A stretch of DNA of 45,037 nt from Candidatus Altimarinota bacterium. Its GTDB lineage: Bacteria; Patescibacteriota; Gracilibacteria; BD1-5; UBA6164. Made by a program: the position numbers and the translations under genes. The stretch spans positions 1 through 45,037 of the forward strand of contig JAQVFO010000009.1 in the NCBI GenBank assembly GCA_028697205.1, given 5' to 3'. The notes under the pieces are model-generated. The model did no database searches. It was not told the DNA's origin and saw only the letters and a program-made list of their open reading frames with translations. This document shows positions 1 to 45,037 of this stretch, piece by piece (position 1 is the stretch's first letter; every line of letters starts with the position of its first letter).

Positions 1-535
1 ATACATATAGTATAACAAACTTAAAGACAGAATACCAAATCTGAGCAATACTAGAATGATGAAGTATACTATGATACAATGTTCTACCACAAACATATGC
101 AGCCACACCACTAAAGAAAGCAACAGCCATGGTAGTGTGAACATACAATGAAAAGATACTAAAAACAAGTACATGATGACTAGACTATATACTAGCAGTA
201 CCAAGTATAATCAATTGAGATATCCAAGATGTAGACTTGATGAGTATAATAACAAAGAAACAACTAGTATACAATAACTATACAAACCTACCAGATTCAT
301 ACAAGAACCTATGATATAGTATGACATGATGATTTGATTTCATACCAAATAAACTAGTAGTATATAGTTGAAGTACACAAGACCTACTACAAGATTCAAA
401 TAAACTAATATTTATAGGAAATCTTAAACAAGCATATAGTGGAACGATAATACAAAATAATCCAACATACAAAGAAATCATAAATACAGATACAACAATA
501 AATCAAGTTTGAGCGATAACACTAGTAAATGATTA
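1..535 (+). repeat. Pilin N-terminal module, copy 1 (3' part)
   Basis: Near-identical to 1886-2420 with a constant offset of 1885 bases and no indels. Similarity fades after about 535, where the two proteins acquire different C-terminal domains. Confidence 0.9.
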
Positions 536-3221: not shown

Positions 3222-5321
3222 TTATTCTACATAAATTTTACTTTTTTCTTCTTTTAATATTTTTCCATCTTTATCATATAAAATTATTTTAATTAGCTTA
3301 TATCAACTATCAATAGATAAAAAATTATCTTTAATTTCTTTATCATTAACAAACCATTTGTAATTATCATAAGTTAGATTAGTAGAAAAATCTAACTTTA
3401 TTTTTTGAGTATTTTTTGGTTTTAGAAAATCAATTTTATATTTACTATTATTTAAAGGTGATGTAATTTCTAAGTAAGATATCGGATTTTTTTCTATTTT
3501 ATCAATAGGACTTTCATAATTATCTTTCTCAAGATAATCAACAATCCCTTTAAATATTTCTCATGCTCAACTTGCTCAGCTTACTCACTTCATCTCACTT
3601 CAATCCTTATTTCCTGCCCAGACTCAAATTATATAGTTTGATGTATATCAGATTGTCCAATTATCTTTGAAATTTCTAGATGTTCAAGTTTTTAGAAAAA
3701 CCTCTTTATTAGGAAAATCTAGGTTTCAATTTATTGGGAATTCTTCAAGTTTATAATATCTGTTTGTGAGTATTTTTTTTATCATATCTGTATACTTTTT
3801 ATCTATTATTTGTTTACAATTATTTTGTCATTCATTATTGTTTTCTATATTATTAATAATTTTTATATCACATAATTCTCAATTATAAGCAAATAATGTA
3901 TAAGCTTTTGTAAGTTCTAAAAGGTTAATTTCTCAAACTCATAAAGTAAGTGCTAATCAATAATAATCAGCATCTTTATTTAAACTTGTGATTCATAGTT
4001 CTTTTAAAAAATTAAGTAGATTTTGAACTCATACTTTTTCAGCGACTTTTAAAGCTGGAATATTAATACTTTGACTAAGAGATTCAGCAATACTTACTTC
4101 TCATTTATAATCAAGAGAATAATTTTTTGGATCATAAGCATATCATAGATTTGTTTGAAATTGAGTTGGTAAATCAAGAATTGTAGTTTCAGGAGTATAT
4201 CATAAATTTTTAAAGGCTAATAAATATGTAAAAGGTTTTAGAGTAGATCATACTTGTCTAGGAGATGTTAACATACTTACTTGTCAGTTTTCACCATTAT
4301 AATTTATTCATCAAATCATAACTTTTAATTCTTTAGTATTTTTATCAATAATTATAATAGAATAATCTTTTACATTTTTCCACATAAGAGGGAGTATGTT
4401 GTTTTTTGCTATTTCATCTATTTTCTGAGTTAAGTTATAATCAATTGTAGTATTTATTTTAAAATTTCATCAACTTTCATAATCTTCTGATTTCGTAGGA
4501 ATTATATAATTTTTAATATAATCTATAACATAAGGTAATTTATTTTCATGATTTTCATTAAATACTAATTTTTCATTTAATATTTCATTATAGTCTATTT
4601 CATTTATTATTTTATCTTTTAATAATGTGTTACATATTTCTTTAAATCTATTTCTAAATTCTAGTCTGTTTATGTAAGGATTATATTTCTTTGGGTTTTT
4701 AGGAAGTGATAAAAGTGTTATTTGTTCAGCCTTTGTTAAATTTTGTAGATCTTTTCAGAAGTAGTAATTTGATGCTGATTTAATTCAATAATTTAAATAT
4801 CAAAAATATATATTTCACAAATAATTTGATAGAATTTCTTCTTTAGAATAATGTTTATTTAATGCTAAACTTAGATAAAATTCTTTAAATTTTTTTAATA
4901 TTGTTCTGTTTTCATTTAGCCAATAATTGTTTCTAATAACTTGTGAACTTATAGTTGAAGCTCATTCAATTATACTTCAAGCTTTTATATTATTTAACGT
5001 TGCTCTAATTAATGCTAAATAATCAATTCAACTATTTTTGAAAAAACTTTTATCTTCTAAATCTATAATTACACTTTTAGTAAATTCTGGGATTTCATTA
5101 AATTCTAATTTTTGGTGTCTATATTTATTGTTTATAATTATTTCTCATATCTTTATATTTTTTGAATCATAGACTATATTTGAATAAGGAATTTGATTAA
5201 TATTTGGAGTAATAATAAAAGTAAATAAATAGGAAAGAAAAAAGACAATAAAAATAAATAAACTAATATTTAATTTATTAATTCTAAATTTGAAATTTTT
5301 AAATTGTATTTTTTTTAGCAT
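3222..5321 (-). CDS. pbpC: Penicillin-binding protein 1C-type glycosyltransferase/transpeptidase
   Basis: 699 residues. It polymerises lipid II and cross-links peptidoglycan outside the membrane. After a short basic N-terminus there is one membrane helix (about residues 20-37). A GT51 glycosyltransferase domain follows, with EDKSFF and GASTISSQ motifs. The transpeptidase domain has SxxK as STLK (PRQVGSTLKPF), SxN as SIN and KTG as KTGTS. The C-terminal ~75 residues look like the beta-rich PBP1C tail (ITSPLNNSKY). It is divergent from the alpha-2-macroglobulin gene with 67 bases between the starts. The same pairing occurs as pbpC-yfhM in enterobacteria, where it is thought to link wall repair with protease trapping. 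It ends 8 bases from the convergent pilin gene, with no hairpin between them. The length is close to the family norm. Confidence 0.9.
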
Positions 5322-5388: not shown

Positions 5389-8300
5389 ATGCAATTCAAT
5401 TTAGTTTTAGAAAAAATAAAGTTATATAGAAAGCATATTTTATCATTTTTCTTAGTTTTTCTTATAGCTATTTTATGAGTATTTACTTATAATTATTTTA
5501 ATGATTCATCATTTAAAGTTATTGCATGAAACTTTGATTTTAATTATAGAAAAATTCCTTTTGATGTTTGATATATTGATTTTACATTATCTCAAGATTT
5601 AGATGAAAAAACAATAACGAAAGAAAATTTTATAGTAAACCCAAAAATTGATTGAGAATTATCATTAGTTTTTCCAAATACAATTAGATATAAATTTTTA
5701 CAAAAATTAAATATATGAGATGATATATCTATTACCTTGAAACAAGGAATTAAATCAAATAAATGAAAAAATTTATGAAATGATTTTAATTATATAGTTT
5801 CAGTTATAGACTCTCCACATGTATTAAAAATTACTCCTAGCTGAAAACTTGATAATTTATGACAAAATATAGCGGTATTTTTTAATATTCCTATGGTTCC
5901 TTTAGCAAGTTTAAGCGAAAAAGATAAGCTACCTTGTCCTTTAGATATAGAACCAAAACTTGATTGAGTTTGTAAATGGACAACTTCATCAGTTTTGGAA
6001 TTTATTCCAAAAAATTGATTTCTATGAGCTACAAAATATAAATTATCAGTTTCTGATAAAGAATGACTTTTATATAAATTAGCGACATGAAGCACAAGTG
6101 AAATAATAACTCCAAGTTTGAAATATTTTGTTGATAGAAACTTTAGTGCAAGTCAAAAAATAAAAATATGATTTAATTTTGCTCCAGATTTAGATAGTGT
6201 AAAAGATAAAATTATATTGTTTGAGTGATATGTAAAAAAAGATGCTTATTTTACATATGATTGAACAAATGAGTCAGTTATTCTTGTAAATATAAATTGA
6301 TGAAATTATAAGTTTGATACATCTTATTCTTTAAAATTTAAAGAGTGAATTAAGCCAAAATATTGAAATTTACCAACTGAAGTTGAAGAGACAAAAACTA
6401 TTACTTCTTTTCCATTTTTAAATCAAGTTATGGTTTATCAAAATATATTTTCATGATCTAGTGTAGTTGATACAAGAGACTTTACTAGTAATAGTTTCAT
6501 TCCTTCAAAAAATACTTTTTTTAAATTATATTTTGAAAATGAAATTAATTTACTTGATAAAAATTTATTTTCTTTTGAAAGTGATAAATGAGATAAAATT
6601 GATTTTAATTTATCATATGTAAAGGAAGAAAATAGTGAAACTAAAATAATAGAAGAAAATAAAAAGGAAATAAAACTAAGTTTAGCAAAGACTTTACAAC
6701 CTAATACAAAATATAAATTAATTGTAAAAAAAGGAATAAATATAAATTTAGAAAATGATATTATAAGAGAATTTATTACTGCTCCAAAATTTGAGGTTAA
6801 AGATTATAAATTTGTATCATATTCTAAATCTTGTCTATATCTAAACAATAGAATTTTAGATATATGGTCAAAGTCTAATGATTTTATAGATACCATTCCA
6901 TCTTCAAAAGTTAATAGTATAAGTGATTATGAATATGTTGATTATCAGGATAGAGTTGCTATGTGAATAGAAAATCAATATTATTCTGGTGAAGCTATTA
7001 TAAAACAAGTTAATGATAATAAATATATTGAAAGAGGATATTGTCCCCCTGCAAAGTGATGAGATACTTTGTATGTTATAAATACTAGGTTAAATCCAAA
7101 TACTGCATATAAGTTAAGCACTAAACAAACTTTAGAAGATGAATATTGAAATACTATACAATCTCCATTTGAAACTAGTATAAAAACATGAAATATTCAA
7201 GATAAAGATAAATATCTGTATACATCATTATCAAAAGAAGTGAATTTAATTCCTACATCACTACCTCTTGTAGTAAATTTACAAACAATTAATTTAGACA
7301 ATGTTGATATAGATGTTTGTATTATGGACAATAATTGATATATAGATTATTCTCAAAATAAATGGAATCAATGATTCTATCCAAAATGTATAAAAACTTA
7401 TAATAAATCTTTAAAGGTAAAAAATAATTATTGGAATCTTACAAATAATAAGTTTGATGTAGAACAAGATATAGTTGGATGAAAAATAAATGCAAATTTT
7501 ATATTATTAAAATGAAGTGCTTGAGGAAGAAACCAATTTTCAAATGTGTTTATAAGATCTGATTTAAATGTAACACTTGAATCAGGTGAAAATAAAAAGT
7601 TACTTTTTATTACTGATTTTAAATGAAATCAGATTTCAGATTTAAAACTTGATTTTATAAAGTACAATTATGCTAAATATTCTACTGAAATAGTATCTCC
7701 AAAATATTCATATAATAAACTTACTTGAGTTTATGAAATTGAAGGTGGAAATAATGATTATAATTATGTAATTGTTTCAAATGATAAATATTTTTGAATT
7801 GTAGATTTAAATTACAATATGTTTTCTGATTATGATTTTAAATATGTTTGATGAACTCCAACTTATGATACAAATTATTTATATTTATATACTGAAAGAC
7901 CAATTTATAAACCATGAGATACTGTTTATTTAAAATGATTGCTTAGAAAATTTGAATTTAATTGATATAAAAAATCTGATATAAAAAAATGAAAACTTGA
8001 AGTTCTTGATTCAAATTATCAAGTTATTTCAACTATGAATATTAATCTAGATAAGAATTCAAACTTTAATTCTAGTTTTGTAATTCCTAATGAAAGTCCT
8101 CTTTGAGAATTTAGTTTTAGATTTACGACTGCAAATCAAGATTATTATAAAAATGATGCACATTTTTATATTGAAGAGTATAGAAAACCAGATTTTAAAA
8201 TAGATACTTCAACAATAAATACAAATTATAATTTATGAGATAAATTGTCTTTTGATGTATTACCAAAATATTATTTTTGATGAAATCTAGTTAGCACAAA

Positions 8301-11300
8301 TGGCCAATATAGTGTTTTAACTCAAAATTATTTCTTTGATGCAAAAGATTATAACAATTATCAATTTGGTGAATGATATGAATATTTTGATTGTGTTTAT
8401 TGGGGGTATTGTTCTTATAATGATAATCTATCTGATGTTAAAGATTTTGTTGTGGATTCAAATTGAAAATGAATAATAAATTATGATTTTTGAACTGATA
8501 CAGGTTCATCTGAAAAAATTTATACTTTCAATATAGAAGTAACTGATAAAGATACAAAAAAAACTGTTAATAAATCAGTTTCAACTATTTTACATGATAC
8601 AGATGCTTATGTATGATTACAGACTCCATATTGGAATGATAAAAAAGTATGAATAAAATCTGAATTTGTAGTTTTGGATTATGATGCTAAACCATTGGAA
8701 TGAAAAAATATAAAAGTTGAAATAATTAAAAGAGATTGGAAACAAGTAAAAAAAGAGTGAGTTGATTGAGTATTTTATAATGATTATTCACTTGAAGAAA
8801 ACAAAGAATCAGAATTTACTCTTACTTCTGATTTAAGATGAGTAGCTTCAAAAATAATTAATACAAAAGATTCTGGAGAATATATGATTAAAGCTAGTTA
8901 TACATGAAAAAATGGAAAAACTTTTGTTTCATCTAGTATTGTTTATGTATCAAGTGATGATTATGTTTCTTGGTATACACCAAATAATGATACAACAGAA
9001 ATTGTTCCAGAAAAAACACAGGTTTTGGTTTGAGATAAAGCAATATATACACTTAAATCTCCTATTAATAATTGAAAAGCGCTTATAGTTGTAGAAAAAG
9101 ATAATTGAATATTAGATTATTTTATTCATGATATAAAATCATATTGAGACAAGATAACAATAAATGTAAAAGATTCATATTATCCAAATTATTATGTAAG
9201 AGCATTTTTGATATGAAGTGAGAAGTGAAATGATTTACCTATTTACAAAAGAGCATTAACTGCAACAAAAGTTTCTACAGAATATAAAAAATTAAATGTT
9301 TCTATATTAACAGATAAAAAATCATATAAACCATGAGAAAAAGTTTGAGTTTGACTAGTAGTTAATGATAGTAAATGAAATCCAGTTCCATGAGCAAATA
9401 TATCTGTTTCAATTGTTGATGAAAGTTTGCTTGCATTGGTTTGAAATCCAAAGAAAAATCCTTATGCATTTTTCTATGATATGAAGAGATATCTTTGAAC
9501 TTTGATGTATAGTTCCATGATAAATTTAATTGATAAACTTGAAGTAAAAGATATAGCAAATTGAGAAAAATGAGGAGCATGAGAACAAATTAAATGATGA
9601 GATAGTAAGAAAAAAAGATGAGTATTTAAAGATACTGCATTTTGGCAGGCTGATGTTGTAACAGGACAAGATTGAAAAGTTTATATACAAAGTGATAGTC
9701 TTCCTGATAATTTAACAACATGGGTTATAGAAGCTGTTGTGAATACACCTGAAGATAATAAAGTATGAGTAGCATACGAATCTGTTACTACTACAAAAGA
9801 ACTTATAATAAATGATAATTTACCAAACTTCCTATGAGTTTGAGATAGAGTTATTTTGTCACCAGTTGTGTTTAATAAAACATGAAAAGATTGAGATTTC
9901 GAATTAAAAATTGATGCTACGAATTTAGATGTTGTTTGATGAAATATTAGAAAATTATTTATTAAAAATTGAGAATCTAAGACAATTAAATTTGAAGCAA
10001 AAATAAAAGAGAGGAGTTTATTTACAGATATGTATATAGCTTCTTCAAAAATAGATTTTAAAGTAAGTGAGCTTTGTGATAATAATTGTAATAATGTTTT
10101 ATCAGATGAAATAGAAAAAACTATTCAAATAAAAGATAGTTCCACAAAAGAAAGTGTTGCTACTGTTTGAAGCACAAAAGATGTTTCATTTGATGAAAAG
10201 ATAAGTCTTTGAGATTTAAAAGATAAAATATGACAAGTAAAAGTAAATTATAGTGCAACGTTATTTAGTAATTTAACTGATTCAATTGATTATTTAAATA
10301 ATTATCCTTATGGTTGTAGTGAACAAAAAACATCAAGTATAATGCCAAATGTATATATAAAAAATTTATACAATAGTATTTGAGCAGATTTTGATTTAAA
10401 TACAAAATTTATAGATTATTATGATAGTGAAGAAAAGATTTTTAAGAAAAAAAGTTTATTTCAGGTTATAAGTGAATATATAGTAGATATTAGAAAATAT
10501 CAAAAAAATGATTGAGGGTTTGTTTATTGGTATGATGTGGATTCTAAGTATCCAAATTATTCAGATTATAGATTAACTTCATATATAATAAAATCATTAG
10601 CAGAACTTGAAAAAATTTGATATAAGCAGGAATGAAAAGTTATGCTTGATGGTATAGGGTATTTGAAAAATAGGTTCTATATGAATTACATAGAATGATG
10701 TGTAAAAACTAGAGATTATAATTGTAAATATAATGAATCTGATAGGTTAGATGCTATTGAATCTATACTAAGTTACAATTCAAATGACTATGAAGCGTAC
10801 AAAATGTATAAATTACTTGATCTAAAAAATGAGGATACTTCAAGTCAACTTAAAAAATCTATTGTTATAGCAAATTTATTGAAAATTAAATCATTAAATG
10901 AAACAGAAAAAAATACATTAAAAAGTGAAATTGATAAAAGTATAAATAAAGTTATAAATGATGATTTAGTTTACAATCCAAGATGAGCTTATATTGGTAA
11001 ATCTAGTTCATATTCAAGAATTGAAAATACATCTATGTTATTAAAAATTTTATCTATTTTATGAAAGAATGAAATTAGTAATTCAGCATATATAATTGAA
11101 AATTTAAATAGGTGGATAATTTCTCAAAAAAAGAATTGAAGTTTTGGTTCTACACAAGACAATATATATGTACTTGATTGAATAACTAATTATATGATAT
11201 CAAGTGATGAATTAAAAAATATTAATGAAGATGTTAAGTTGAAATTGAATTGAAATAATATTGATGAAAAAATATATAATGATAAAAATAAGTTAGAAGT

Positions 11301-11952
11301 TAGTTCTAAAAGTATAGATTTAAATTCACTTAAAAATAACAATACTTTAAATATATCAAAAACTTGAAATTGAAGTGTTTATTATGATTTGAGTATGGAT
11401 TATTTTTTAACTGGTAAAGATATAGAAGCTAGAGATGAGTGATTTGCTGTTATTAAAGAGTATTATGATTACAATGAATATAAAAAAATTGATTCATTAA
11501 AGAAAAGTGAGTGGCAACAATATATAAAATGAAAAATATCATATGATGATTTAAAATATAAAAAATCAGTTTATGCATACTTAACTAAATTGAATGAATT
11601 TAGTGTTTGACAATTAGTAGTTGTAAGAAACGAAATAATAACACCAGAAACAAGAGATAAGGTTGCTTTTGAAGGATATATTCCATCTTGAGCAGAACTT
11701 ATAAATCCAAATTTAGAAACATCATCAAAAGCTGCATTTAATTTATGAAATGATATTTTTGAAAGAAGTGAATATAGAATGGATAGGTTTTTTGGATATG
11801 TAACAACTCTAGATTCTTGAATTTATGATATATCATATTTAATTAGATTTACTCATGCTTGAGATTTCTATGTTAAACCTAGTTATATAAGTGAATTTTA
11901 TAATGCTGAAGTTTTTGGTAGAAGTGATGGGGAAGTTATAAGTGTAAAATAA
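5389..11952 (+). CDS. Bacterial alpha-2-macroglobulin (thioester protease inhibitor)
   Basis: 2187 residues, longer than typical bacterial A2M (about 1,500-1,900). An N-terminal uncleaved-anchor helix (FFLVFLIAILGVF, about residues 24-37) replaces the usual lipobox, so it is probably held in the membrane with the body outside. Many beta-sandwich macroglobulin domains follow, including RPIYKPGDTVYLKG near the middle. The thioester motif is YGCSEQ with Cys1643, equivalent to the CLEQ/CXEQ of the family. The thiol-ester-domain helices and the receptor-binding-like domain complete the C-terminus. The family traps attacking proteases through a conformational change and covalent capture. Divergent partner of pbpC. 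It is read through a great many UGA-Gly codons and ends just before a strong hairpin terminator. In a cell that lives against another cell it may guard against host or prey proteases (inference). Confidence 0.9.
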
Positions 11953-16930: not shown

Positions 16931-16968
16931 AAAAAGCCAAAATCATTTCGATTTTGGCTTTTTTTTTA
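16931..16968. terminator. Bidirectional terminator between gyrA and 16966 gene
   Basis: A 14-bp stem AAAAAGCCAAAATC/GATTTTGGCTTTTT with loop ATTTC and a T-run; A-run on the other side. It serves both convergent genes. Confidence 0.9.
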
Positions 16969-18903
16969 GGATAATGCTTTATCAAATTTTTGCCAATTCA
17001 ACATATCATTTCAATCTTGTCATTGTCATTTTATAAATTTTTTATAAAATTCATTTTCTAATACGTACATTCATTTAATTGAATTTCATGCAATGTAAGT
17101 TCATTTATGTTTGTAATTTGTAGTATTTATAAAAATAATTATTTGATTTAGTGTTTTATTTAGAAATCATTCTTTTGTTCCTTTTCATATTGAAGTTAAA
17201 ATTCAAATTAAGAATATTCTAACTTCATTTTTATCTAAGTAATTATCTCTTTCATTAAAAAATCAAACAAATTTTTTTTCTAATACTCTAAATATACTTT
17301 CTCTGTAACTCCATAAACTTCATAGATTTAAGTCTTCTAAAGTTTTTTTAAAAAATATAAGTTTTTCTAATCATTCTTTTGTTTTTGTGAATCACTTTTC
17401 TTCTAAAGAAAGTTCATCTATTTTTATTTTAGTTAATTTTCAATCTTCTTGATAATCTATACTTACTAATTCTCAAGATGAGTTTTTATTTAATATAGTA
17501 TTTTTTAAATCTAAGTTTTTTGAATTATTTCACTTAAACTCTACATTATTTTGTTCTTTTTCAAGTTTTGTTAATTCTTGATCTAGTTCTTTATTTTGAA
17601 TTCTTAATTCTTTTAATATTTCTTCTTCATTTTCTCATTTTGATATTATTTCAATAGATTTTTCATCTAGATGTTTTTCTATTATTTTTGATTTTTTTAT
17701 TTCAAATTCTTGTTTTTCTATTTTATTTTGTTTTTCTTCAATCTTTTTTAATTTTTCAATATTTTTTCATGCATCTCTTTTTGCGATTTCTATATCAACT
17801 TTTTCTTTTTGAATTTCTATTTCTTTAATTCAAAGTACTAATCAAATTAATTCTTTGATTGATCAAACTTTTATAACTGGTTTAAGTATTTTTACCATTT
17901 GTATTGCACTGTTTGTATTTTCTAGTTTAGAGTAAATTTCATCAGATTTTTCTTTTGATAGTTTATATTTTACAGATAAATTGTTTAAAATTACTTCTTT
18001 TTTAGCTTTAATTTCTACTCATAATCAATATGATAGAAGTTCTAAACTTGGTGTTTCAGTTTCTACTATATCTTGTTTTCATGCTTCTTCTAGATATTTT
18101 TCACGTGTAACTTTTTCATTTAATCATTGTTTAAATTTATCTAAACTTTCCGTATTTGTGAAATTATTTATTAGAGTTTCTGAAAGTTTGAAATTTGATT
18201 CAAGTATTTCTCTAAATCAAACATTTATTACTCAATCAACTATATATCAAAGTCATTTTTTCCTAAGTATATTTTCAGATGCTGAGTATTTTTTTCATCA
18301 CCATATTTTTTGCAATTCTTTTAACTTCTTGGCTCATATTTCTATATCTCATTTTCATAGCACATAAAGCAATCTTTCAGCAATTTCTAAATCTTTTAAT
18401 TGTAAGTCTTTAGCTAAGTATTGTATATATGATGCTAAAGCTACTGAGTTTATTTTATTAATATTTAAATCTCATAAATCTTTTTCAAAATTTGTAACAG
18501 AAATCTCAAATTTTTTTCATTTTCTTTTTCATTCGATAGTTTTATTTGTAGATTCATCTAATTTATCTAATCATTTATTTATTCTTGTATCTATCCAATT
18601 TGGATTTTTTAGTTTTTCTATATCTGAAAATTCACTATATATTCTTACTAATCAATTTCATGTATTTTTTTGGATATAGTTCTTATTTTCATTTATTTCT
18701 TTAAGTAAATCAATATATTCTTTTTTTGCATGATTAAATTCTTTTGAGTTTTCTCAATATCTTTCTTTTAACTCTTTAAAAATTGAAAATGATTCTTTGA
18801 TATATGATATGATTAAATCATCTGTTAATCATCAAATAATTTCGTTTGTTTTAATTTCAATAGACTCAAATGAATCATTTAGTATAACTTTTTGTGTTTG
18901 CAT
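16966..18903 (-). CDS. Large hypothetical coiled-coil protein, paralog of 18909 gene
   Basis: 645 residues, start MQTQKVILNDSF. Not assigned to a known family. The N-terminal motif RYGENSKEFNHAKKEY is echoed in the adjacent gene (DFGETSDLYKNALVEY). A long charged coiled coil rich in Lys, Glu and Ile covers about residues 345-450. The C-terminal ~130 residues (LGSLWSYRESIFRVLEKK) align by eye with the C-terminus of the neighbour (LLNLWKYRERIFKAIAEK). No signal peptide or clear membrane segment, so probably cytoplasmic. It starts 5 bases after the stop of the 18909-21707 gene and is therefore second in a two-gene operon. The pair probably arose by duplication and may form a hetero-oligomer (inference). 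Confidence 0.8.
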
Positions 18904-18908
18904 ATACT

Positions 18909-21707
18909 TTAAATATATTGTTTAAATTTATCTTGTAAGAATTGTCATTTATTATTTTTATCTGTAAATTTTTCTATAAAGCTTTTTTCAATAGGTGAGT
19001 ATCAAGTTTGAGTATCTTTTCATTGTCATATAACATTTATTTTCTTTATATCATTTTTTAATTCAGCAAAATTCTTGTTTATAAAACTTATCTTTGAATC
19101 ATTATTTATTGATTTAATTATACTGCCTAAAAATAATTTTATTTCTTCCTCTTTTAAAAAATCGTCATTTGCATTAAAAGAAATTCATCTTTTTTCAGCA
19201 ATAGCTTTAAATATTCATTCTCTGTATTTCCATAAATTTAATAAATTTAGTTCACTTAGAGTTTCAGTAAAATTTTTAAAATTCTCTTTTGTTTTTTCAC
19301 TTCATTTTATAAGAGTAGCCTCATAATTTGTTATAGGAAGATTTATTATTTCTCATGTATTACTAGTTGTTGTAAAACTATACTCTCAATTATTTCATGA
19401 TACTTTTGATGTTTCAGTATTTTGTGAGTTTATTATTTCATGGTTATTTTGGTTTTGAGATTTAATTCACTCTTCTTCTAATTCTTTTTTCTTTTGATAT
19501 TCATCAACTTCTTTTAGATAATCAGATTCTTTAATTTCTCATTTTAAAAACTTAAAATATGAGTCTTTAGTTGCTATGTCTTGTTCTATTTTTTTATCCA
19601 AGAACTCAATTTTAGTAATGTTTAATAAGATATCTTTTATTCTTGCTTCATCATTTGTTAACTGCTTAGATTTAAATCAAAGATATTCTATAAATTTATT
19701 TCTTATTTCCCATTGATATTTATTTTCATTTTCACCTTTTGGTTTAGGATTATTTTTTACAAATTTTTTAAATTCCGATAATACAAAATTTAAATCTAAT
19801 TCTTTTCAAATAAAAAAATCTTTAATTTTTGGTTTTGTCTTACTAATATCATCTATATTAATTCATTGTAATAATGAATTAATATCATATTTTATTTTTC
19901 AATCTCTATCAGATAAATAGAATTGTTGTTCATTTAAGATGGCTAACCATATTTTTTTTATTTTCTCACCACTTCATTTTCATCAAGCTATTTCTAACAA
20001 TTCTGGATATGCTGATTTTGCATTATCTAATGATAAAGTAGCTTCTAAAAATTTTTGATAAAATTTTTCTACATTTTCTTTTTGTATTCAGTTGTTTATT
20101 ATTATTTTTAAAATTTCTTCTTTATTAAATTGTAATGCAATTGTATTTATATGAGATAGGTATGATCATATGAATTCTTTATTTCAGAAGAATCATTTCT
20201 CTAATTCATAAGTGTTTACTCAATTTTTATCATTTAATTTTAAGTATGTTTCAGTGTATTCACTGAAATTTGGATTTAAAAATATTTCATTTGCAGTAAA
20301 ATTTTTTCAGATTAGCTTTGAATAAATAAAATCTAAATGTTTTAAATCATTTATTTTAAAAGATGATAAATATTTTAAATTAAAATAAGGAGAATCTATT
20401 ATTGTTTTTAATAATGATTCATCATTGAACATCTCAGGGGGAATAAGGTTTATTATTTTCTCAATTCAATTAAAACTACTTGTCTTTAATATTTCCTTTG
20501 TGAAATTTATATCGTTGTGTATCGTATATAATTGAGAATAATATCAATTTTGAATAAGTTTTAGTAGACTAGTGCTTATGTCTCAGTTGTTATTTATTCA
20601 ATTATTTAAAATGTAATCGTTTAAAGTATTTATTAATGTATCTGTAATATTTTTAGAATTTAATATTTCTATTACATCTTTGGCAGTTTTTGCTTTAATT
20701 TCAGAATGAATATTTATTAATTCAATTAATCATATAGCATCTTGTTCACTTATATCTTTTATAGAATTTGAATCTAAAATTATATTACTTAGTAATTTAA
20801 AATTATCTGATTTAGTATTTAAAAGAACAGTTCTATTTATTGCAGTATTTATATCAATTTCAGCGTTTGCTTTTATTTTTGAATTAATTAAAGATATGTC
20901 TTTATTTACTGGAAAATAAGTATATATTTTTGTTCATTCATCTTTTATACAATAGTCTATAAGGAAATCTAAAGCGCTTGGGTTGTCAATTTTTAAAAAT
21001 AATTGTTTGTAAAATAATTCTTTATTAAATAATCAATTATTAAATGCAACATTAAAATAAATATTATTTTCAATTAAGTTTTTTAAATTAACAGCATCAT
21101 TTATAAATTTATTTGATATATAAGAAATATTTTTACTATATGCTATAAAATATTTATTGATTTCAAGTCTTTGCTTCATTACAGGATTTAATTTGTTGTA
21201 TAGATTAGAATAATCAATATCCACAAATATATTGTTATTAAAAGAATAACGTAAGAACTTTTCAATAAATTCATTATTAGTTATAAATGTTAATTCATTT
21301 CAAGTAGAATGAATATAGTAATTAAATAATGCATTTAATTTATCTTCTTGAATAGATTGTATAGATATTGAATTTATTGTTTCAGGCTTTAATTTTATCA
21401 TTTCTATGAACATAGTTTGAAATTTTGTAAATTCATTTTCCACATTTTTTATATTATTATCTGAAATATCATCTTTAAGTTCAATAATCTGTTCATTTGT
21501 TTTTGAAGTAATTTCTTTTTTTAAAACATTTATTTTTTCTTTTATATTATTATATTCAACTAATGCATTTTTATATAGATCTGACGTTTCTCAAAAATCG
21601 GATTTGAAAGCATTTAAAATAATATTAGATTGATTTAATAGGTCTTCAATCTTCTCATTTTTATCAAATTGTGTATTATTAGAATTTATTTCTATATTTT
21701 CACTCAT
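18909..21707 (-). CDS. Very large hypothetical protein, paralog of 16966 gene
   Basis: 932 residues, start MSENIEINSNNTQFDKNEKI, first gene of a two-gene operon. No known family recognised. The N-terminal ~110 residues are helical and coiled-coil-like. A long middle region rich in Asn, Ile, Leu and Lys has helix-helix periodicity suggesting an alpha-solenoid. A short low-complexity segment (QKKKELEEEG, SQNQNNHE) leads to a C-terminal domain shared with the next gene (ELNLLNLWKYRERIF). No signal peptide or membrane helices. Asn and Ile are abundant, as expected for an AT-rich genome. Size and architecture suggest a scaffold or cytoskeletal role, but nothing in the sequence proves function. Confidence 0.8.
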
Positions 21708-36326: not shown

Positions 36327-36672
36327 ATTTTTTAACAAATTCAACAACTTTTCCAAATACTTCTGGATTTGTTATTGCTAGATTTGATAAAACTTTTCTG
36401 TTTAATTTTACTTTAGCTTTGTAAAGCATATTTATAAAAGTTGAATAGTTTAATCCTAATTCTTTTACTGCATTTCAGATTCTTATTGTCCAAAGTCTTC
36501 TAAAATCTCTTTTTTTAAGTCTTCTACTTTTATATGCATTTGTTCCTGCTTTCATTAAAGCATTTTTTGCTCTAGAGAAAACATTTCAATTCATCATTTT
36601 AAATCATTTAGCTGCAGCTATTACTTTTTTATGTCTTTTTTTAGTCATTAGACCTCTTTTTACTCTAACCAT
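36325..36672 (-). CDS. rplT: 50S ribosomal protein L20
   Basis: 115 residues, normal. It organises 23S rRNA early in 50S assembly. [56 protein letters not shown] and [27 protein letters not shown] are diagnostic. Third gene in the conserved infC-rpmI-rplT cluster; 40 bases after rpmI. Confidence 0.97.
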
Positions 36673-36712
36673 TTTTGAAATTTTAAATGTTAAATTTTAA
36701 ATATATTTAATA

Positions 36713-36904
36713 TTAAGCAAAAGGTAATTGTGCTTTAATCTTATTTTTTTCAACTCAAGATAAAACTAAACCATATTTATTTCTTCATTTAGCTTTTTTA
36801 CTTTTGTTTGATAAAAGGTGTTTTTTGAAAGATTGAGCTACTTTGAATTTACCAGTTCAAGTAACTTTTACTCTTTTTTTAACTCAACTTCTTGTTTTTA
36901 ACAT
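36713..36904 (-). CDS. rpmI: 50S ribosomal protein L35
   Basis: 63 residues, normal. MLKTRSGVKKRVKVTGTGKF and SFKKHLLSNKSKKAKGRNKY fit L35, although the internal sequence is more divergent than L20. Located between infC and rplT as in most bacteria. Confidence 0.95.
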
Positions 36905-36925
36905 AATCTTTTAATTAAATTATAA

Positions 36926-37438
36926 TTATTTTATTGTTTTTAAACTTACTGTTATTGTATTTCAAGTATGCATTATATCTTTTTCTATTTTATAGATATC
37001 TTCTAAGCTTTTTACAAAATTTATCATCTTTGTTTTTGCTAAGTCAGCATATTGATTTTCTCTTCATTTCATCATCAAAGAAACTTTTAAAGGATTTCCA
37101 TCTTCTGCGAAACCATAAGCTTGTTTCTTTCTTATATCCAAATCATGATCACTTATATTGAAAGTTATTCTTATAGTTTTTAATTCAGGAGCTTTTGTTC
37201 TTTGTTTATTCTTTTGTTCTTGTTTTTTCAATTTGTATAAATACTTTCAATAATCAAGTATTTTTACTATTGCTATATCATCTTTTCTTCAAATTTCCAT
37301 AAGGTCTAATCAACTTTCAGAAGCTTTTTCACGAGCTTCTCTAAGTGATATAGTCCCTAAATTTTCTCAATCTTCTGTAATTAATTGGACATTTTTTGCT
37401 CTAATCTCATCGTTTAGAGGTCTTTTTGATTCCTTCAT
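36926..37438 (-). CDS. infC: Translation initiation factor IF-3
   Basis: 170 residues. It controls start-codon selection on the 30S subunit. The N-domain (RPLNDEIRAKNVQLITEDGENLGTISLREA), linker and C-domain (LKTIRITFNISDHDLDIRKKQA, KVSLMMKGRENQYADLA) are complete. It uses ATG rather than the AUU start found in E. coli, so classical IF-3 autoregulation by start codon is not expected. First gene of infC-rpmI-rplT, 21 bases after rpsT, so rpsT probably leads the same transcript. Confidence 0.97.
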
Positions 37439-37459
37439 TAATAAAGTTAATTGTTAAAA

Positions 37460-37768
37460 TTATTTAGCAGATAATTCAAGAGTTTTAAGCATTTTAGAAT
37501 ATTTTGATTTTCTTCTAGATGCTGTGTTCTCATGCATTATATTCTTTTTAACTAATTTATCAAGTATAGCTTGAAGTCCTGCTTTTGTAGTTTTTCAATC
37601 TTTTTTCTCATTGAAAAAAACTTTTTTTGCAGTTTCTGCATCAGAAGCTTTTATTGCTTTTTCAAAAGAAATTCTTGCTTCTCTATATATAGCTTTAAAA
37701 TAGTCATTTTTTGACTTTCTTTTTAAACTTTGTCTACTAGCTTTTTTTGCTGATTGTGTTATTGGCAT
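37460..37768 (-). CDS. rpsT: 30S ribosomal protein S20
   Basis: 102 residues, slightly longer than usual (~87). A basic all-helical 16S rRNA-binding protein. MPITQSAKKASRQSLKRKSKNDYFKA, then KKVFFNEKKDGKTTKAGLQAILDKLVKKNIMHENTASRRKSKYSKML, matching S20. Starts with MPI and precedes infC closely. Confidence 0.95.
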
Positions 37769-37857
37769 TGTTATAATTTTTACAAACTAAAAACGGGGCT
37801 TTGTTTAAAGTGAGGAGATTATATAATTAAATCAAAAATAGTCAAAAGAAAATTAAA

Positions 37858-37881
37858 AAATCTTTTTGCATAAAAAGATTT
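37858..37881. terminator. Hairpin between AAA+ gene and rpsT
   Basis: 10-bp stem AAATCTTTTT/AAAAAGATTT with loop GCAT; T-run on the minus strand (TTTTTTAATTTT). Possibly a second, back-up terminator for the AAA+ operon. Confidence 0.5.
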
Positions 37882-37895
37882 GAAAAAATCAAAAA

Positions 37896-37929
37896 TTTAA
37901 AAGTCTAATGGTTAGCTTAGACTTTTAAA
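37896..37929 (-). terminator. Terminator of the AAA+/VWA operon
   Basis: 13-bp stem TTTAAAAGTCTAA/TTAGACTTTTAAA around an 8-base loop, 13 bases past the AAA+ stop; the minus strand continues TTTTTGA. Confidence 0.75.
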
Positions 37930-37942
37930 AAATTATATATTC

Positions 37943-40900
37943 CTAAAATATTTTTTCAACAATTTTTCTTACTATTTTTTCTTGAGTATCTTTATCTTCA
38001 TTTTCATAAACTACTTTTCTTGCTTTTGGAACAACAACATCTAAAACTATGTTTTTAAATGATACTCATTCTTGATGAATAAATAAATCAAATATATCTG
38101 ATGCATCTCTATATGAAATCTCATATATAAATTTTTCATCATAATCATCACTTGATTGTTTTGTTCTAAGTTCATTAAAAAATGCAACTAAATTTTTAAT
38201 TCTATCTAAATTATCATAAATAGTTTTCATAGATTTATCTATTATATTATTTTTATTTCATCATTTTTGATCTCATATATTTTCCCATAGCACTTTAAAA
38301 TCATTGAAAGAAAGTTTATTAAAGAAATCAATTCAAGTATATTTTGAAACTTTATAAGCTTCATTTAGTTCTCAAGGATATTTTATTTTGTTGATTCTAG
38401 ACCTACTAACTAATGGACTAGATAATTTTTCATAACTATTACAAGTTCAAATAAACAGACAATCAGAATTTGCTTTTATTTCTCATATTTGAGGGTTGTG
38501 AACAGATCTTCATGTGTCAAATAATCTATGTAAAGTTTGTAAAACTTGAGGACTTAATAAATCTATTTCATCAAAAATTATCATTGTTCAAGGTTTTTGC
38601 ATAAGTTTTACCCAGTCTGCAATCTCTTTTCTAGTTTCTCATGCTTTTAAACTATCTGCGAATAATAAATCTGTAATTTCCATTCATTTATGACATTGAA
38701 CTCTTATTACTTCTCTATTTGTTGCTGCTGCAAAGTATTCACACATAACTGTTTTTCAAAGTCATGGAGGTCATTCAAGTATATCTATTCATCTTCTAGC
38801 ATTTTTTTGTATTTTAAATCATATACTTATTTTTTTAAATATTTCTTTTTCTTCTTCAAGTACTATAAAGTTTGGATTTATTTGTTTTAAATTTGTTCTA
38901 GGATTTAAATTTAACTTTCTAGCAAGATTCTCAGCAAAAAAGTCAAATTTTCTTACATTTAGATATTTTTTCTTTAGATTATGTATATTTTCAATAATTT
39001 TTCTTTTTTTGTCAGCATAACTTTTTTCTTCATCTATTGTTAATTCTTTTCTTCAAATTAATTCATTTAATCACCCTAATTCGGTCTTAAGTGCATTAAA
39101 TCTATCTATTCAATATCTTTGCCAAGATGATATTTCAGATTGTAATTTTATAAAATCATTTTGGCTTGTTTCTCATTCTATTTCGTCAAATGCCATTGCA
39201 TGAGCAAATCTACTAGGGTCATGTAAATAAGAATCTATATTAAATTTTATTCATCCATCATATTCTATTTCAAGTCTTATATTTCAATTTGCAGTTCTAT
39301 GTCATCATAATTTAAATCATATTTTATTTCTAGTAACTTCAGTATAATAAAGTGAAGTATCAATTCAGTATTCATTTAATGAACTTTTTACTCATACAGA
39401 AACTAATTGTTTCATTTTTATTATTCACTTTCTAGAATTAAATAAATTATCAATTGTTAAACTTAATCTTTCTGCTTCACTTTTTGGTAGTTCATTTAAT
39501 TGTCATTTAATCATTATTACTAAAGGATCTGAATTACTCATTGAATCTAAAACTGTTCCATCAGTTATACTATCTATTACTTCTGATAGTCAAAGTATTA
39601 GATCTTCTATTTCTTCAACTTTTTCTCTTAATTTTGTTTCTTTATCTTTTTCTTTGATTTTTTCTAAATTTCATATCTCAGTAATTCTTGAAGAAATAGT
39701 ATTTTTTAATTCATCTTTAAATTTATCTTTTTCATCATCTTGTAAAAGTTCAATTAGATTTTCAGTTTGTAAATAAATATCAGTAGAATAAATTTGAGTT
39801 AGTTGACTTAAATATTCAATATTTGATATAATGTCTTTAATTTTTAAAATATTTTCTGAAATTGTTGTTTTTACTACTTCACTATTTTTTATTCTGAAGC
39901 TCAAAATCTGAGTTTCTACTTTATTAGATAATTCTTTTATATTTATATCAAGTTCATTATCAATTATAGGTAGTTGAGATCTTGATTTTTTTAATTCTTC
40001 TATATTTGTTTTTAATGTAAGCAAAATAGGAAAACTAGAATAGTCTCCTCAATTTAATTCTTCTATTACTTGTTCATACATATCATTTAAGTCTAATAAA
40101 CTTTCTTTTATTTCTTGTAGTTTTATAGTAAATCTTTTAAAATTTATAGCTTTTTCTATACTATCTGTTATTCAAGAAACTCAAATTATTAATGGATTTG
40201 ACTTAATTTGAAGTAAAATACTATAAACCAGCTCTATTTTTTCATTACTATTAGCTTCATCAAATAATTCTTTTAAAGTGCTTTCTCAAACTTTTGTCTG
40301 CCAAATTTTATCTAATATATCTTGGTGTGATTTATCTATAGTCGTATGTTTATTATGATTTCATTGTAATCAGTTTATATCTACTTGTAGTCATCAGTTT
40401 CACAATGTTTCTAGTAATGCCTCTTTTGCAGCGTCTTTTCTCTCTATGACTTTTTTTTCTATTATTTCTCATCAATTATCTACATATCATATTTCAAATT
40501 GATCGAAGTTAGTATCAACACTTGCAACTTTTCAATCTGAAGTTAAACATGTTAAATCATCTTTATTATCAATTTGTATGATATCTGATATATCATCAAA
40601 AGTTTTTATTTCATGTAATGTTTTTCTATTTACTATATGTAGCTTTGTTTCTCATCAATCATATTCTGAAATTAAAAGTAAGAAGTTATAATGGTTATCA
40701 ATTCTCATTTTTTTGATAGTTCAATAATGAGTTGCAAAAGGATTTCAATCAGTTTGTTTTCAGTCTGAATCTATATTTATATATTCTATATGATTATCAT
40801 TTACTACAATCACATCTCACTTTTTATTATCAACTACAACAATTAAGTCTCATACTAAGGTAGAAACTACTTTATTGTTTTTAATCAGGTTTATAGAAGT

Positions 40901-41449
40901 TTGAGTATTGTCAATTGTAAATCAAGATACTATGTTACTAGTAGTATTTAAAGGAGGTTTTCATAGTTTTAATGAATCTGATTGAATTCAATTTTTATTA
41001 AAATCACTTATATTAGCATGAAAAAAATTTCAATCTGAATCTTCAAATATATAAAAATCATCTTGAGTATAAACTTGTTTTATTTCAAATAAAGGAGTTC
41101 ATGAAATAAAATTAATACCTAATATAGATTCTTGTCAGTTGTAAAAGTTTCAAATTCTAGAATTTTTTTTATGTACTTGAATTAATTTATGAAGATTATT
41201 TTTATGTAAAGTATTAATACATAGATGTCAATCATTGTTCCGAGTAGTTCAATTTGAAAAATTATAAGCATTGATTTTATTAAAAAAAGGAATATTACTA
41301 GTCTTACCAATGTTTAACTTTGTTTGCAATCACTTAATAAAATTTTCTCCTAAAAGAGTTAATTTAGTTTTTACGACTTTTGATTGAGTAGTTTTTTCTA
41401 CTCAATTAGTTGTTTGATCTAATGTTCAAGTAATAGGATTTTTTGTCAT
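37943..41449 (-). CDS. Giant AAA+ ATPase with propeller-like N-terminal region (MoxR/midasin type)
   Basis: 1168 residues. Residues 1 to ~380 show short beta-strand repeats (FLLLISEYDGGETKLHIVN, LTCLTSDGKVASVDTNF) suggesting a beta-propeller; about 380-760 is a long helical coiled-coil region. The C-terminal AAA+ module has Walker A GPPGLGKT (893-900), Walker B MIIFDEIDLL (Asp960-Glu961), sensor-like GTCNSYEKLSSPL and an arginine-finger segment VSRSRIN. It resembles AAA_5/MoxR proteins, which partner with VWA-domain proteins in metal-chaperone or complex-remodelling roles. It lies 23 bases downstream of a transglutaminase-VWA gene in one operon. Codon 70 is CGG. No membrane helix or signal peptide; substrate unknown. 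Confidence 0.88.
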
Positions 41450-41472
41450 TTTTTACAAATTAAAAATATAAA

Positions 41473-44016
41473 TTAGTTTTTGTTTGAATATCTTTTTATT
41501 ATCTTTCTTAGATTTTCATTATATGCTCATATAAGTTTTTCTGTTAATTCACTCACATTTCTAACAACAACAGTTCATCAACTTGTTTCGTCTCAGAAAT
41601 ATTCTTGAAGTCCGGAAATGTTTTGAGAACTTCAGTTTATATAGTATGCTGTTAGTCAGAAATTTTGTCATCTAATCTGTTTTATAAGAGCTTTTAGTAC
41701 ACTATCTTTTAATCAATTAGTAGGCTCTCAATCTCATAGGAAACTTATATTTCAAAAAGACTTTTGTCAGTTTTTTCTAGCATACCTTTTCATAGATTCA
41801 AATACATAACTTAGTGGTTGTCATATATCTGTTCATCAACTTTTCATAATTGCTCTCATGAGTCTTGAAGGAATATTATTTTTTCTTTTATCACTAAACT
41901 TTTCTCAAAATTCCATAATTTCTTCCATTTCAGTATCAAATATAACTATGCTAAAATTTACTTTAAAGTATTCTAGTACTTTTGCTCTTATAATTGCGGC
42001 TTTTATTGCTTCTCTTAAAGGAGAGTTTGGTGTTTCAAAATTTCACATACTTCAAGACCTATCTATGATTATTGTCTCAAACATATTTATTTCATTTATT
42101 TCAGCTATTTCTTTATTTCTTCTAAAGATTCTTTCATCTCAAGTAACCGCATAATTCACAAGTTTTCAACTATTTCATATTTTTGTTCAGGATTTATGAT
42201 GATTATCTCTATCTTCTTCTATTCTAAAAACTGGGGGGAGTATTTTTTCTAAAGCTTTAATTTGTTTTTTTACTTCTGGCTCTAACTCTTTTTCTAGTTC
42301 TTTGTAAAGTTTGTAAAGTCTTAGCTCTTCTTCACTAAATCACATTTTTTCCATTTCAGATTTCATTTTAATTTTTTGTTCTTGAATATCTTTTTTTATC
42401 TCTCTTGCATAGTCTTGCAGTTTACTTTTGAAATCTTCATCAAGTAAACTATTTTCAAGAGCATTATCTACTGATTTTTCATCATCTATATTTTTAAGAT
42501 TTTCTTTTTCTTGTTTTAATATTTCTTCATTTCAAACTTTGTCAACCATATCTTTTGCAAAGTCTGTTAGTCAAGATTTATCAAGAATATCTCTTATTTC
42601 TTCTTTTTTTGAGGCTTTTTCAAGTTTTTCAATAGTTTTTTTAAGATTTTCAGCTTGTTTAGTTAAGTTATCATCTTTTGCTTTTTTTATAAGTTCTTCT
42701 AGTACTTCAGATGTGGATTTTCATCATCATTGTTGTCAATCTCATCAACTTTGATTTCAATTTCCAGTTTGTGATCATTGTTCTCAAGATTTTTCCTCAG
42801 AAGCTTGTGAATTTCATTGACTTTGACATCAAGGTTGATTTCAACTTTGTCATTGTCAATTTTGATCTATATTTGAATCAGTTGCTTTATCTTGTCAGCT
42901 TTGATTTTGATCTAAATTTTCATTACTTTCACTTCAATCTTCTTTTGTTGTAGGAGTTGCATCGATTCTTTCCCATTTTCATATTTTTTCATTCCATATT
43001 TCACTCCATGCATGTCAGTTATTTGATGATAGAAGACTTTTTCAATCTTTGTCTAGAGATTGAACCATATGTCATACAACAAGTCTAGCAGGAATTCATA
43101 CTTCTCTTGCAAGTCATACAAATAAGCTATTGGCAGAAAAACATTCTAATACATCTGATTTATCAAGATTTGATATATAGTTTTTACTTGATGATTTATC
43201 TCTTAAAGTTCATTGTAGACGAGTAGAATATTTTTTAGTTTTTAATATGTATTCTTTTATTTTTAATGCCTTTGTTTTTGAGTCATTATTTTTTATAAAT
43301 TCAAGAAAATCTTTTGTGTTATTAGTTAATTTATCAAATACTATTTTTTTACTATCTTCTTGGATTGGTCAATTTAGTTGTAGAGATTGATTTATATAAA
43401 ATTTAAAACTTATATATTGTTTTTCTTGAGATGTAATATATAAACAATTGTTTTGGTCGATTTGGAATATAGGAGTTGTTTTTCATGTAAAGTGAATAGA
43501 ATTTATATCTGGTAAACTTCATTCTGGAAGTGGAATAGAAGTAGTTCATTTTGGTAAAGTTCATGCATAGGAATATGATCTTTTAGTTGTATCAATCTGA
43601 TGATTTAAAGGATTTAGATTTTTCTTTTTTGACCAAAGATTTGTTATATTATCAAAATAAGATTTTTTTCAACTTGTAAAATATCAAATAAATCATGGAC
43701 TAATTTCTGCAAATCTTGACTCTTCATCTAAATTTTCTCAAAATTCCATATCATGAGGAATATACTCATCTTGATCTTCTAAATGAGATTCATATTTATC
43801 TAGTTTCCTTTTTTGATTATTATTTCATCAAAAAAGTCCTTTTAATTTTTCAATAAAAGAAGGTTCTTCATTTTTTAAAATTTCCTCAACTTTATCTTTA
43901 ACTGGATTAGTTGTTTTTTCTACTTTTCATTTTAAAAGCATTTCTATGTAAGTTTTTATAACTTCAAGATTTTCTTTAAATGAATTTCCCGTTGATACTC
44001 TATCTAATTTAGACAA
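41473..44016 (-). CDS. Transglutaminase-like/VWA fusion protein
   Basis: 847 residues from TTG 44016; an in-frame ATG lies at 43941, but the 25 residues before it (SKLDRVSTGNSFKENLEVI) look coding. The middle is a transglutaminase-like domain: Cys292 (LECFSANSLFVGLAREVGI), His335 (NGHAWSEIW) and Asp352 (ERIDATPT) form the Cys-His-Asp triad. A Gln/Gly/Ser/Asn-rich linker (about 360-425) and a charged coiled coil follow. The C-terminal ~200 residues are a von Willebrand A domain with MIDAS residues DRSGS (652-656), SGGTDIG and LGDGEPTNG. No signal peptide. First gene of an operon with the AAA+ ATPase. MoxR-AAA+, VWA and transglutaminase proteins are commonly encoded together in bacteria; here two are fused. 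Confidence 0.85.
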
Positions 44017-44668: not shown

Positions 44669-44686
44669 AAAATTAAAAAATAACAT

Positions 44687-45037
44687 ATGCAACAAAACTC
44701 AAAAAAAGCCTTTACTTTAGTAGAATTAATAGTAGTAATAACAATACTAGCAATACTGTGAAGTATAGCCTTCATATCACTGCAATCATACACAAAAAAT
44801 GCAAGAGACGGACAAAGACTGTCAGATATAAATAATATAAGAAAAAACCTAGAACTATTCCTAACAGAGAAATGATTCTACCCAACACCAGATAATTGAG
44901 TAAATATAACATATAGCTGAGCAACAGCATGGATCCAATGAACAGTGTGAGACAATGTAATAAAGAACCTACAGAAACTAAATAAGAAACCAACAGACCC
45001 ACTAACACAAAATGAATATACATATAGTATAACAAAC
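44687..45037 (+). CDS. Type IV pilin-like protein (3' partial)
   Basis: 117 codons, open to the right edge. MQQNSKKAFTLVELIVVI is a prepilin peptidase signal (cleavage before Phe9, Glu at +5) followed by the hydrophobic helix. The visible part is the same module as 1555-1905 with only scattered substitutions. The last 20 bases equal bases 1-20 of the window, and continuing there keeps the frame, so this may be the 5' end of the gene at 1-1526 (joined length 618 residues) if the contig is circular or the repeat was collapsed in assembly. Confidence 0.9.
44687..45037 (+). repeat. Pilin N-terminal module, copy 3 (5' part)
   Basis: Matches 1555-1905 at a constant offset of 43132 with only scattered substitutions. 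Confidence 0.9.

What the first reader, a model, noticed from the sequence alone, without database searches (positions are those of the whole stretch)
37943..44016. Operon of a transglutaminase-VWA fusion and a propeller-AAA+ giant
One protein carries an intact Cys-His-Asp transglutaminase triad (292/335/352), a Q/G/S-rich linker and a C-terminal MIDAS VWA domain. The other has a propeller-like front, a long coiled coil and a MoxR/midasin-type AAA+ engine. MoxR, VWA and transglutaminase genes often cluster, but this fusion with a 1168-residue AAA+ partner is, to my knowledge, unusual. Neither has a signal peptide, so a cytoplasmic cross-linking, proteolytic or remodelling machine is possible. 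Midasin works by AAA+ and MIDAS domains in one complex, which offers a mechanistic parallel.
Basis: partly seen in the sequence, partly recalled or inferred. Interest (0 to 1): 0.75.

Follow-up and report, generated by a model that had tools for sequence, protein, structure and literature searches.

The report
Candidate AAA+ machine with transglutaminase-like head
Two neighbouring bacterial genes, conserved as a pair across many Patescibacteria, encode an energy-using ring protein and a partner carrying an enzyme head, and they probably form a machine that cuts or modifies other proteins; relatives of the partner carry a different, metal-type enzyme head in the same place.

Summary
Two genes 23 nt apart encode an 847-aa transglutaminase-like/VWA fusion (triad C292/H335/D352; complete MIDAS) and a 1168-aa protein with a NorQ/CbbQ-type AAA+ domain. 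Pfam, AlphaFold2 and structure comparison agree: TgpA-like TGase, midasin/NorD-type MIDAS, CbbQ/NorQ AAA+. The propeller front is only weakly supported.

It is a conserved two-gene cassette. All 19 related loci with both genes readable keep them adjacent, in scattered Patescibacteria; the fusion is not unique. In this genome it is a ~6.2-kb insertion between rpsT and ybeY; a congener has the empty site.

(1) All six relatives whose MIDAS partner lacks the TGase carry an HExxH/ED zincin-like head in its place. This favours a hydrolase over a cross-linker. (2) In related ATPases the Mg2+-site acid has moved: GKD with NE (16 sequences), against GKT/GKN with DE. The window keeps GKT/DE.

Best model: an ATP-driven, MIDAS-docked hydrolase that works like NorQ-NorD; accessory, role unknown (regulated proteolysis or conflict). 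Peptidase activity, docking and substrate are inferred. New variant of a known kind.

The parts
41473..44016 (-). TGase-like/VWA fusion gene, 847 aa, TTG start, code 25
   Evidence: N-terminal residues 10-28 align with L101, so the upstream start is plausible
42922..43719 (-). beta domain + transglutaminase-like core (residues 100-365); C292 at 43141-43143, H335 at 43012-43014, D352 at 42961-42963
   Evidence: Pfam PF01841 E 1.2e-11; TgpA periplasmic domain Foldseek E 2e-9, VIA Z 20.2 over 248 residues
42715..42921 (-). Q/G/S/N-rich linker (residues 366-434), predicted disordered
   Evidence: pLDDT 23-33 over most of it, composition
42247..42714 (-). helical region (residues 435-590)
   Evidence: AF2 helices
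41482..42246 (-). pre-VWA finger-like segment + MIDAS VWA (residues 591-845; D652/S654/S656, T729, D762)
   Evidence: Pfam VWA_2; Rea1/MDN1-MIDAS Z 24, NorD VWA Z 18, generic VWA Z about 17
37943..41449 (-). giant AAA+ protein gene, 1168 aa, code 25
40490..41098 (-). all-beta, propeller-like front (residues 118-320), most variable part of the pair
   Evidence: AF2 strands; weak propeller matches; mean pairwise identity 28-38%
38870..40465 (-). long helical / coiled-coil region (residues 329-860)
   Evidence: AF2 secondary structure
37946..38866 (-). NorQ/CbbQ-type AAA+ module (862-1168): Walker A 893-900, Walker B D960/E961, sensor 1 N1004, Arg finger R1016, helix-2-insert hairpin 930-943, pre-sensor-1 hairpin 982-992
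   Evidence: Pfam AAA_5 E 9e-19; CbbQ2 Z 21.8, NorQ Z 21.2; invariant columns; strands
37896..37929 (-). operon 3' hairpin, terminator-like
   Evidence: 13-bp stem, -12.8 kcal/mol, z -2.97; inside the inserted segment
37888..44098 (.). inserted segment carrying the whole transcription unit
   Evidence: empty site in congener G254, rpsT and ybeY 115 bp apart

Best explanation
The pair forms an AAA+/MIDAS machine built like NorQ-NorD. The 1168-aa protein assembles as a ring through its C-terminal NorQ/CbbQ-type domain, with the propeller-like front and long helices as variable recognition arms. The 847-aa protein docks by its finger and MIDAS domain in the ring pore. ATP-driven turning or pulling of that domain positions a flexibly tethered transglutaminase-like cysteine hydrolase, which cleaves (less likely deamidates or cross-links) a target bound by the arms. 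Shown here by sequence and model: the domains, the catalytic residues, the conserved pairing, the lineage-specific insertion, and a zincin-like head in place of the TGase in relatives. Inferred: ring assembly, docking, peptidase activity, substrate. The cassette is an accessory cytoplasmic system, probably for regulated proteolysis or conflict.
For: Pairing: adjacent in 19 of 19 related loci with both genes present, gaps -38 to 81 nt, in both gene orders. Fold matches: CbbQ2/NorQ Z 21-22, MDN1/Rea1 MIDAS Z 24, NorD VWA Z 18, TgpA Z 20. NorQ-NorD docks finger-in-pore, which its authors presume general for AAA+/VWA pairs (PMC13036017). Head swap: six TGase-less VWA partners carry HExxH followed by an E-D motif; the window's own C-terminal half matches the profile of that family at E 2e-34. 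The front is the least conserved region.
Against: No complex was modelled; single-chain pTM is 0.39-0.41. The zincin-like head rests on motifs only: no Pfam or PDB match. The head swap does not prove that the TGase is a peptidase. Propeller evidence is weak. The neighbourhood is housekeeping, so a conflict role has only patchy distribution and variability behind it.
Confidence: 0.5

Rival explanations
1. A NorQD/CbbQO-type maturation chaperone: the TGase-like head is a binding domain or a specific modifying enzyme, and the machine remodels or matures one dedicated client rather than processing targets.
For: The closest solved relatives are chaperone/activase pairs.
Against: The triad is invariant in 23 of 23 TGase-bearing members, and the alternative head also carries a catalytic-type motif. 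Flanking genes differ from locus to locus, so no client gene travels with the pair.
Confidence: 0.22
2. A defence or conflict system in which a sensor front activates a proteolytic effector, related in logic to the MoxR-vWA ternary systems. This concerns the role and can be true together with the best explanation.
For: Patchy distribution and lineage-specific insertion; variable front; MoxR-vWA conflict systems with peptidase domains are described (PMC7159879); one relative locus (L091) has an AAA+ that matches PF20030 bpMoxR beside separate TGase and VWA genes.
Against: Flanks look like housekeeping genes; no relatives in the phage, plasmid and viral collections searched; PADLOC gives only an ATPase-level hit.
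Confidence: 0.3
3. A protein cross-linking (true transglutaminase) machine.
For: Transglutaminase-like fold and triad.
Against: The superfamily includes thiol peptidases (PMC7159879); relatives carry a zincin-like head in its place.
Confidence: 0.1

Closest known systems
NorQ-NorD and CbbQ-CbbO (MoxR AAA+/VWA pairs)
   Same: AAA+ fold, helix-2 insert, MIDAS VWA partner with pre-VWA segment, two-gene pairing
   Different: AAA+ subunit has about 860 extra N-terminal residues; partner has a TGase-like head and a low-complexity linker
Midasin (Rea1/MDN1)
   Same: Its MIDAS domain is the best structural match (Z 24)
   Different: Midasin has six AAA domains and the MIDAS in one chain; here one AAA domain per chain and the MIDAS on a partner
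TgpA transglutaminase with MoxR/DUF58 clusters
   Same: TGase-like fold, linkage to a MoxR-type ATPase
   Different: No membrane segment, no neighbouring DUF58 gene, VWA fused to the TGase
MoxR-vWA ternary conflict systems (Kaur et al. 2020, PMC7159879)
   Same: MoxR AAA+ with vWA, propeller-like and peptidase-type elements
   Different: No VMAP component, no propeller C-terminal to the vWA, ordinary P-loop, two genes only

Membership tests
MoxR/NorQ-CbbQ AAA+ | AAA_5 domain with Walker A, Walker B, sensor 1 and Arg finger | tested here: met
   Pfam E 9e-19; invariant K899, E961, N1004, R1016
MoxR/NorQ-CbbQ AAA+ | fold including helix-2 insert and pre-sensor-1 hairpin | tested here: met
   Z 21-22 to CbbQ2/NorQ; hairpins at 930-943 and 982-992 in the model
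NorD/midasin-type MIDAS partner | complete MIDAS (DxSxS, T, D) and fold with pre-VWA extension | tested here: met
   D652/S654/S656/T729/D762; MDN1/Rea1 MIDAS Z 24 over 216-222 residues
NorD/midasin-type MIDAS partner | docking of the finger into the AAA+ pore | not testable with these tools
   no complex prediction offered
Midasin | six AAA domains and MIDAS in one polypeptide | tested here: not met
   one AAA domain in P0001, MIDAS in P0002
Transglutaminase-like superfamily | Cys-His-Asp triad in the PF01841 fold | tested here: met
   23 of 23 family members match PF01841
Transglutaminase (cross-linking enzyme) | transamidation activity | not testable with these tools
   needs an enzyme assay
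TgpA family | transmembrane segments | tested here: not met
   maximum hydrophobicity 1.22 against 2.5-3.3 in the membrane-type proteins L148, L151, L153, L154
MoxR-vWA-beta-propeller ternary systems | bpMoxR PF20030 match | tested here: not met
   no match for P0001 at E 1, nor in the 20 family members at E 0.01
MoxR-vWA-beta-propeller ternary systems | propeller C-terminal to the vWA; P-loop GXXXTAKS often seen | tested here: not met
   the VWA ends the protein; P-loop is GPPGLGKT
VMAP ternary systems | VMAP component encoded with MoxR and vWA | tested here: not met
   no such Pfam match in the two proteins and no third gene in the inserted segment
Zincin metallopeptidases (for the head of TGase-less relatives) | relationship to a known HExxH metallopeptidase family | tested here: inconclusive
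   motifs in six proteins; no Pfam or PDB match

The most novel reading that the evidence does not exclude
A Patescibacterial class of AAA+/MIDAS machines whose partner carries interchangeable catalytic heads (cysteine-type or zinc-type), with, in one clade, the Mg2+-binding acid relocated from Walker B to the P-loop (GKD with NE).
Probability: 0.45. Interest if true: 0.8.

Novelty: new variant of a known kind. Interest (0 to 1): 0.6.

Why it matters
It would show MoxR-type ring ATPases driving enzyme heads tethered to a MIDAS partner, a use not described in the papers found here, in uncultured bacteria with small genomes. The head swap and the moved Mg2+ ligand are natural experiments that make both the head's chemistry and the ATPase site testable.

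Tried and rejected
Reading under table 11, TAG=Q or TAA/TAG=Q: not coherent. Scan of viral contigs with a 117-aa fragment (one weak hit) and of genome contigs with P0002 alone (none) before the alignment scan worked. Phages, plasmids and viral contigs: no relatives. Shared direct repeats at the insertion ends were not tested properly: the two end regions were searched separately. One origin of the TGase-bearing AAA+ genes is not rejected (p-AU 0.35), so the number of head swaps (2 on the tree) is uncertain. The Mg2+-site states need only 2 changes on the tree, so the co-variation rests on few events. Propeller matches, E 0.063 and scattered E 0.006-0.06, are too weak to settle; the structure search was filled by the AAA+ part. 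Membership of known MoxR-vWA conflict systems: tested and not met.

Full report
Observation. The two ORFs exist only when TGA is read as glycine (table 25). The window is the whole contig C4 of a 1.27-Mb genome in 19 contigs. The 847-aa protein has Transglut_core (E 1e-11) and VWA_2 (E 6e-6), the 1168-aa protein AAA_5 (E 9e-19). Triad and MIDAS residues are conserved in relatives. The genes are on one strand, 23 nt apart.

Structure. AF2 models (mean pLDDT 71 and 70, pTM 0.41 and 0.39) were built from alignments of the window and of genome contigs relatives. Foldseek and VIA-align: the TGase part matches the TgpA periplasmic domain (Z 20); the VWA part is best with Rea1/MDN1 MIDAS (Z 24), then NorD (Z 18) and generic VWA (about 17); the AAA+ part is best with CbbQ2 and NorQ (Z 21-22), then midasin and dynein rings (14-16). 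The beta-rich front at 118-320 was not covered by these matches.

Relatives. A scan of genome contigs with an alignment gave 58 loci. Those whose titles name a lineage are Patescibacteria, apart from seven Clostridia-, Ilumatobacteraceae- and Acetatifactor-type loci that match only in the TGase part. In 19 loci both genes can be read and are adjacent: TGase first in the three code-25 relatives, AAA+ first in the sixteen others. A second group has a TGase-VWA gene followed, where the contig allows, by a smaller AAA+ gene, often with a canonical Walker A. In sampled genomes, TGase-VWA profile matches occur in 15 of 380 of the phylum and giant-AAA+ profile matches in 2 of 380, each count including the window's own genome; with the single sequences, 29 and 25 of 288 of the class have a match at E 0.001, many of them partial. 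None of four congeners has either gene.

Insertion. Window DNA matches congener G254 over 36386-37887 (84%) and again from 44099 (79%), and rpsT and ybeY lie 115 bp apart in G254. The intervening 6.2 kb holds the two genes and a terminator-like hairpin. Gain is the simpler reading; loss in G254 is not excluded. rpsT, infC, rplT and ybeY were named by eye from sequence.

Head swap. VWA partners of six related AAA+ genes lack the TGase. All six have HExxH at residues 119-173 followed by an E-D motif: L086, L099, L177, L178, L179, L181. The spacing is 38 residues in L086, L178 and L179. Five were aligned; H119, E120, H123, N154, E157 and D158 of L086 are invariant there. Several also have a Q/G-rich linker. 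No known metallopeptidase family was matched. Caveats: for the genome of L099 the AAA+ is split over two contigs, and L181 is cut before the VWA, with a matching VWA end on another contig of that genome.

Mg2+ site. Across 27 AAA+ modules the P-loop residue after Lys and the first Walker B acid are T/D (window and L102), N/D (nine) or D/N (sixteen), each clustered on the tree, two changes in all. A literature search found no paper on it; that is no proof of novelty.

Partner discordance. In the four code-25 systems the TGase-VWA proteins are 46-61% identical by region, but the AAA+ modules fall in two types, window/L102 (49%) and L100/L101 (56%), with 24-29% across; the TGase-VWA tree instead joins L101 with L102. 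Partner or domain exchange would explain it; unequal rates are possible. The propeller-like front is the most variable part in both groups.

Mechanism. By analogy with NorQ-NorD, whose finger-in-pore docking is described in PMC13036017, the VWA partner would dock in the ring and be turned by ATP hydrolysis, and the TGase head on its disordered linker would act on targets. This is inference. The head swap makes a hydrolase the better guess than a cross-linker.

Comparison. Membership in the MoxR-vWA ternary conflict systems (PMC7159879) and in the TgpA family was tested and not met. The AAA+ is a MoxR/NorQ-CbbQ-type ATPase by domain and fold, and the pair works, as far as anatomy tells, like NorQ-NorD.

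Noticed in passing
L177:5245-11317, L178:3006-8925, L180:2451-3784, L181:1873-3198: AAA+ systems with zincin-head partners, or cut before the partner, are accompanied by several proteins of 130-440 aa, similar to each other at the start and without clear Pfam match; possible substrates or adaptors.
   Followed up: partly
L091:7757-16066: Unfused TGase (702 aa), separate VWA (809 aa) and an AAA+ (1246 aa) matching PF20030 bpMoxR: a possible bridge to known ternary systems.
   Followed up: partly
window 1-20 and 45018-45037; 1539-1905 and 44671-45037: The contig ends share 20 exact bases and a 367-nt, 96% repeat of a pilin-like gene: assembly break in a repeat, or a circular join.
   Followed up: no
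window 5389-11952 and 3222-5321: Giant bacterial alpha-2-macroglobulin-like gene (2187 aa) beside a transglycosylase/transpeptidase penicillin-binding protein.
   Followed up: no
window 16966-18903 and 18909-21707: Two tandem proteins of 645 and 932 aa without Pfam match at E 0.001.
   Followed up: no
L108:1914-3206, L111:7207-8307: In two Levybacteria-type genomes the pair lies beside genes that look by eye like ftsA and ftsZ.
   Followed up: no
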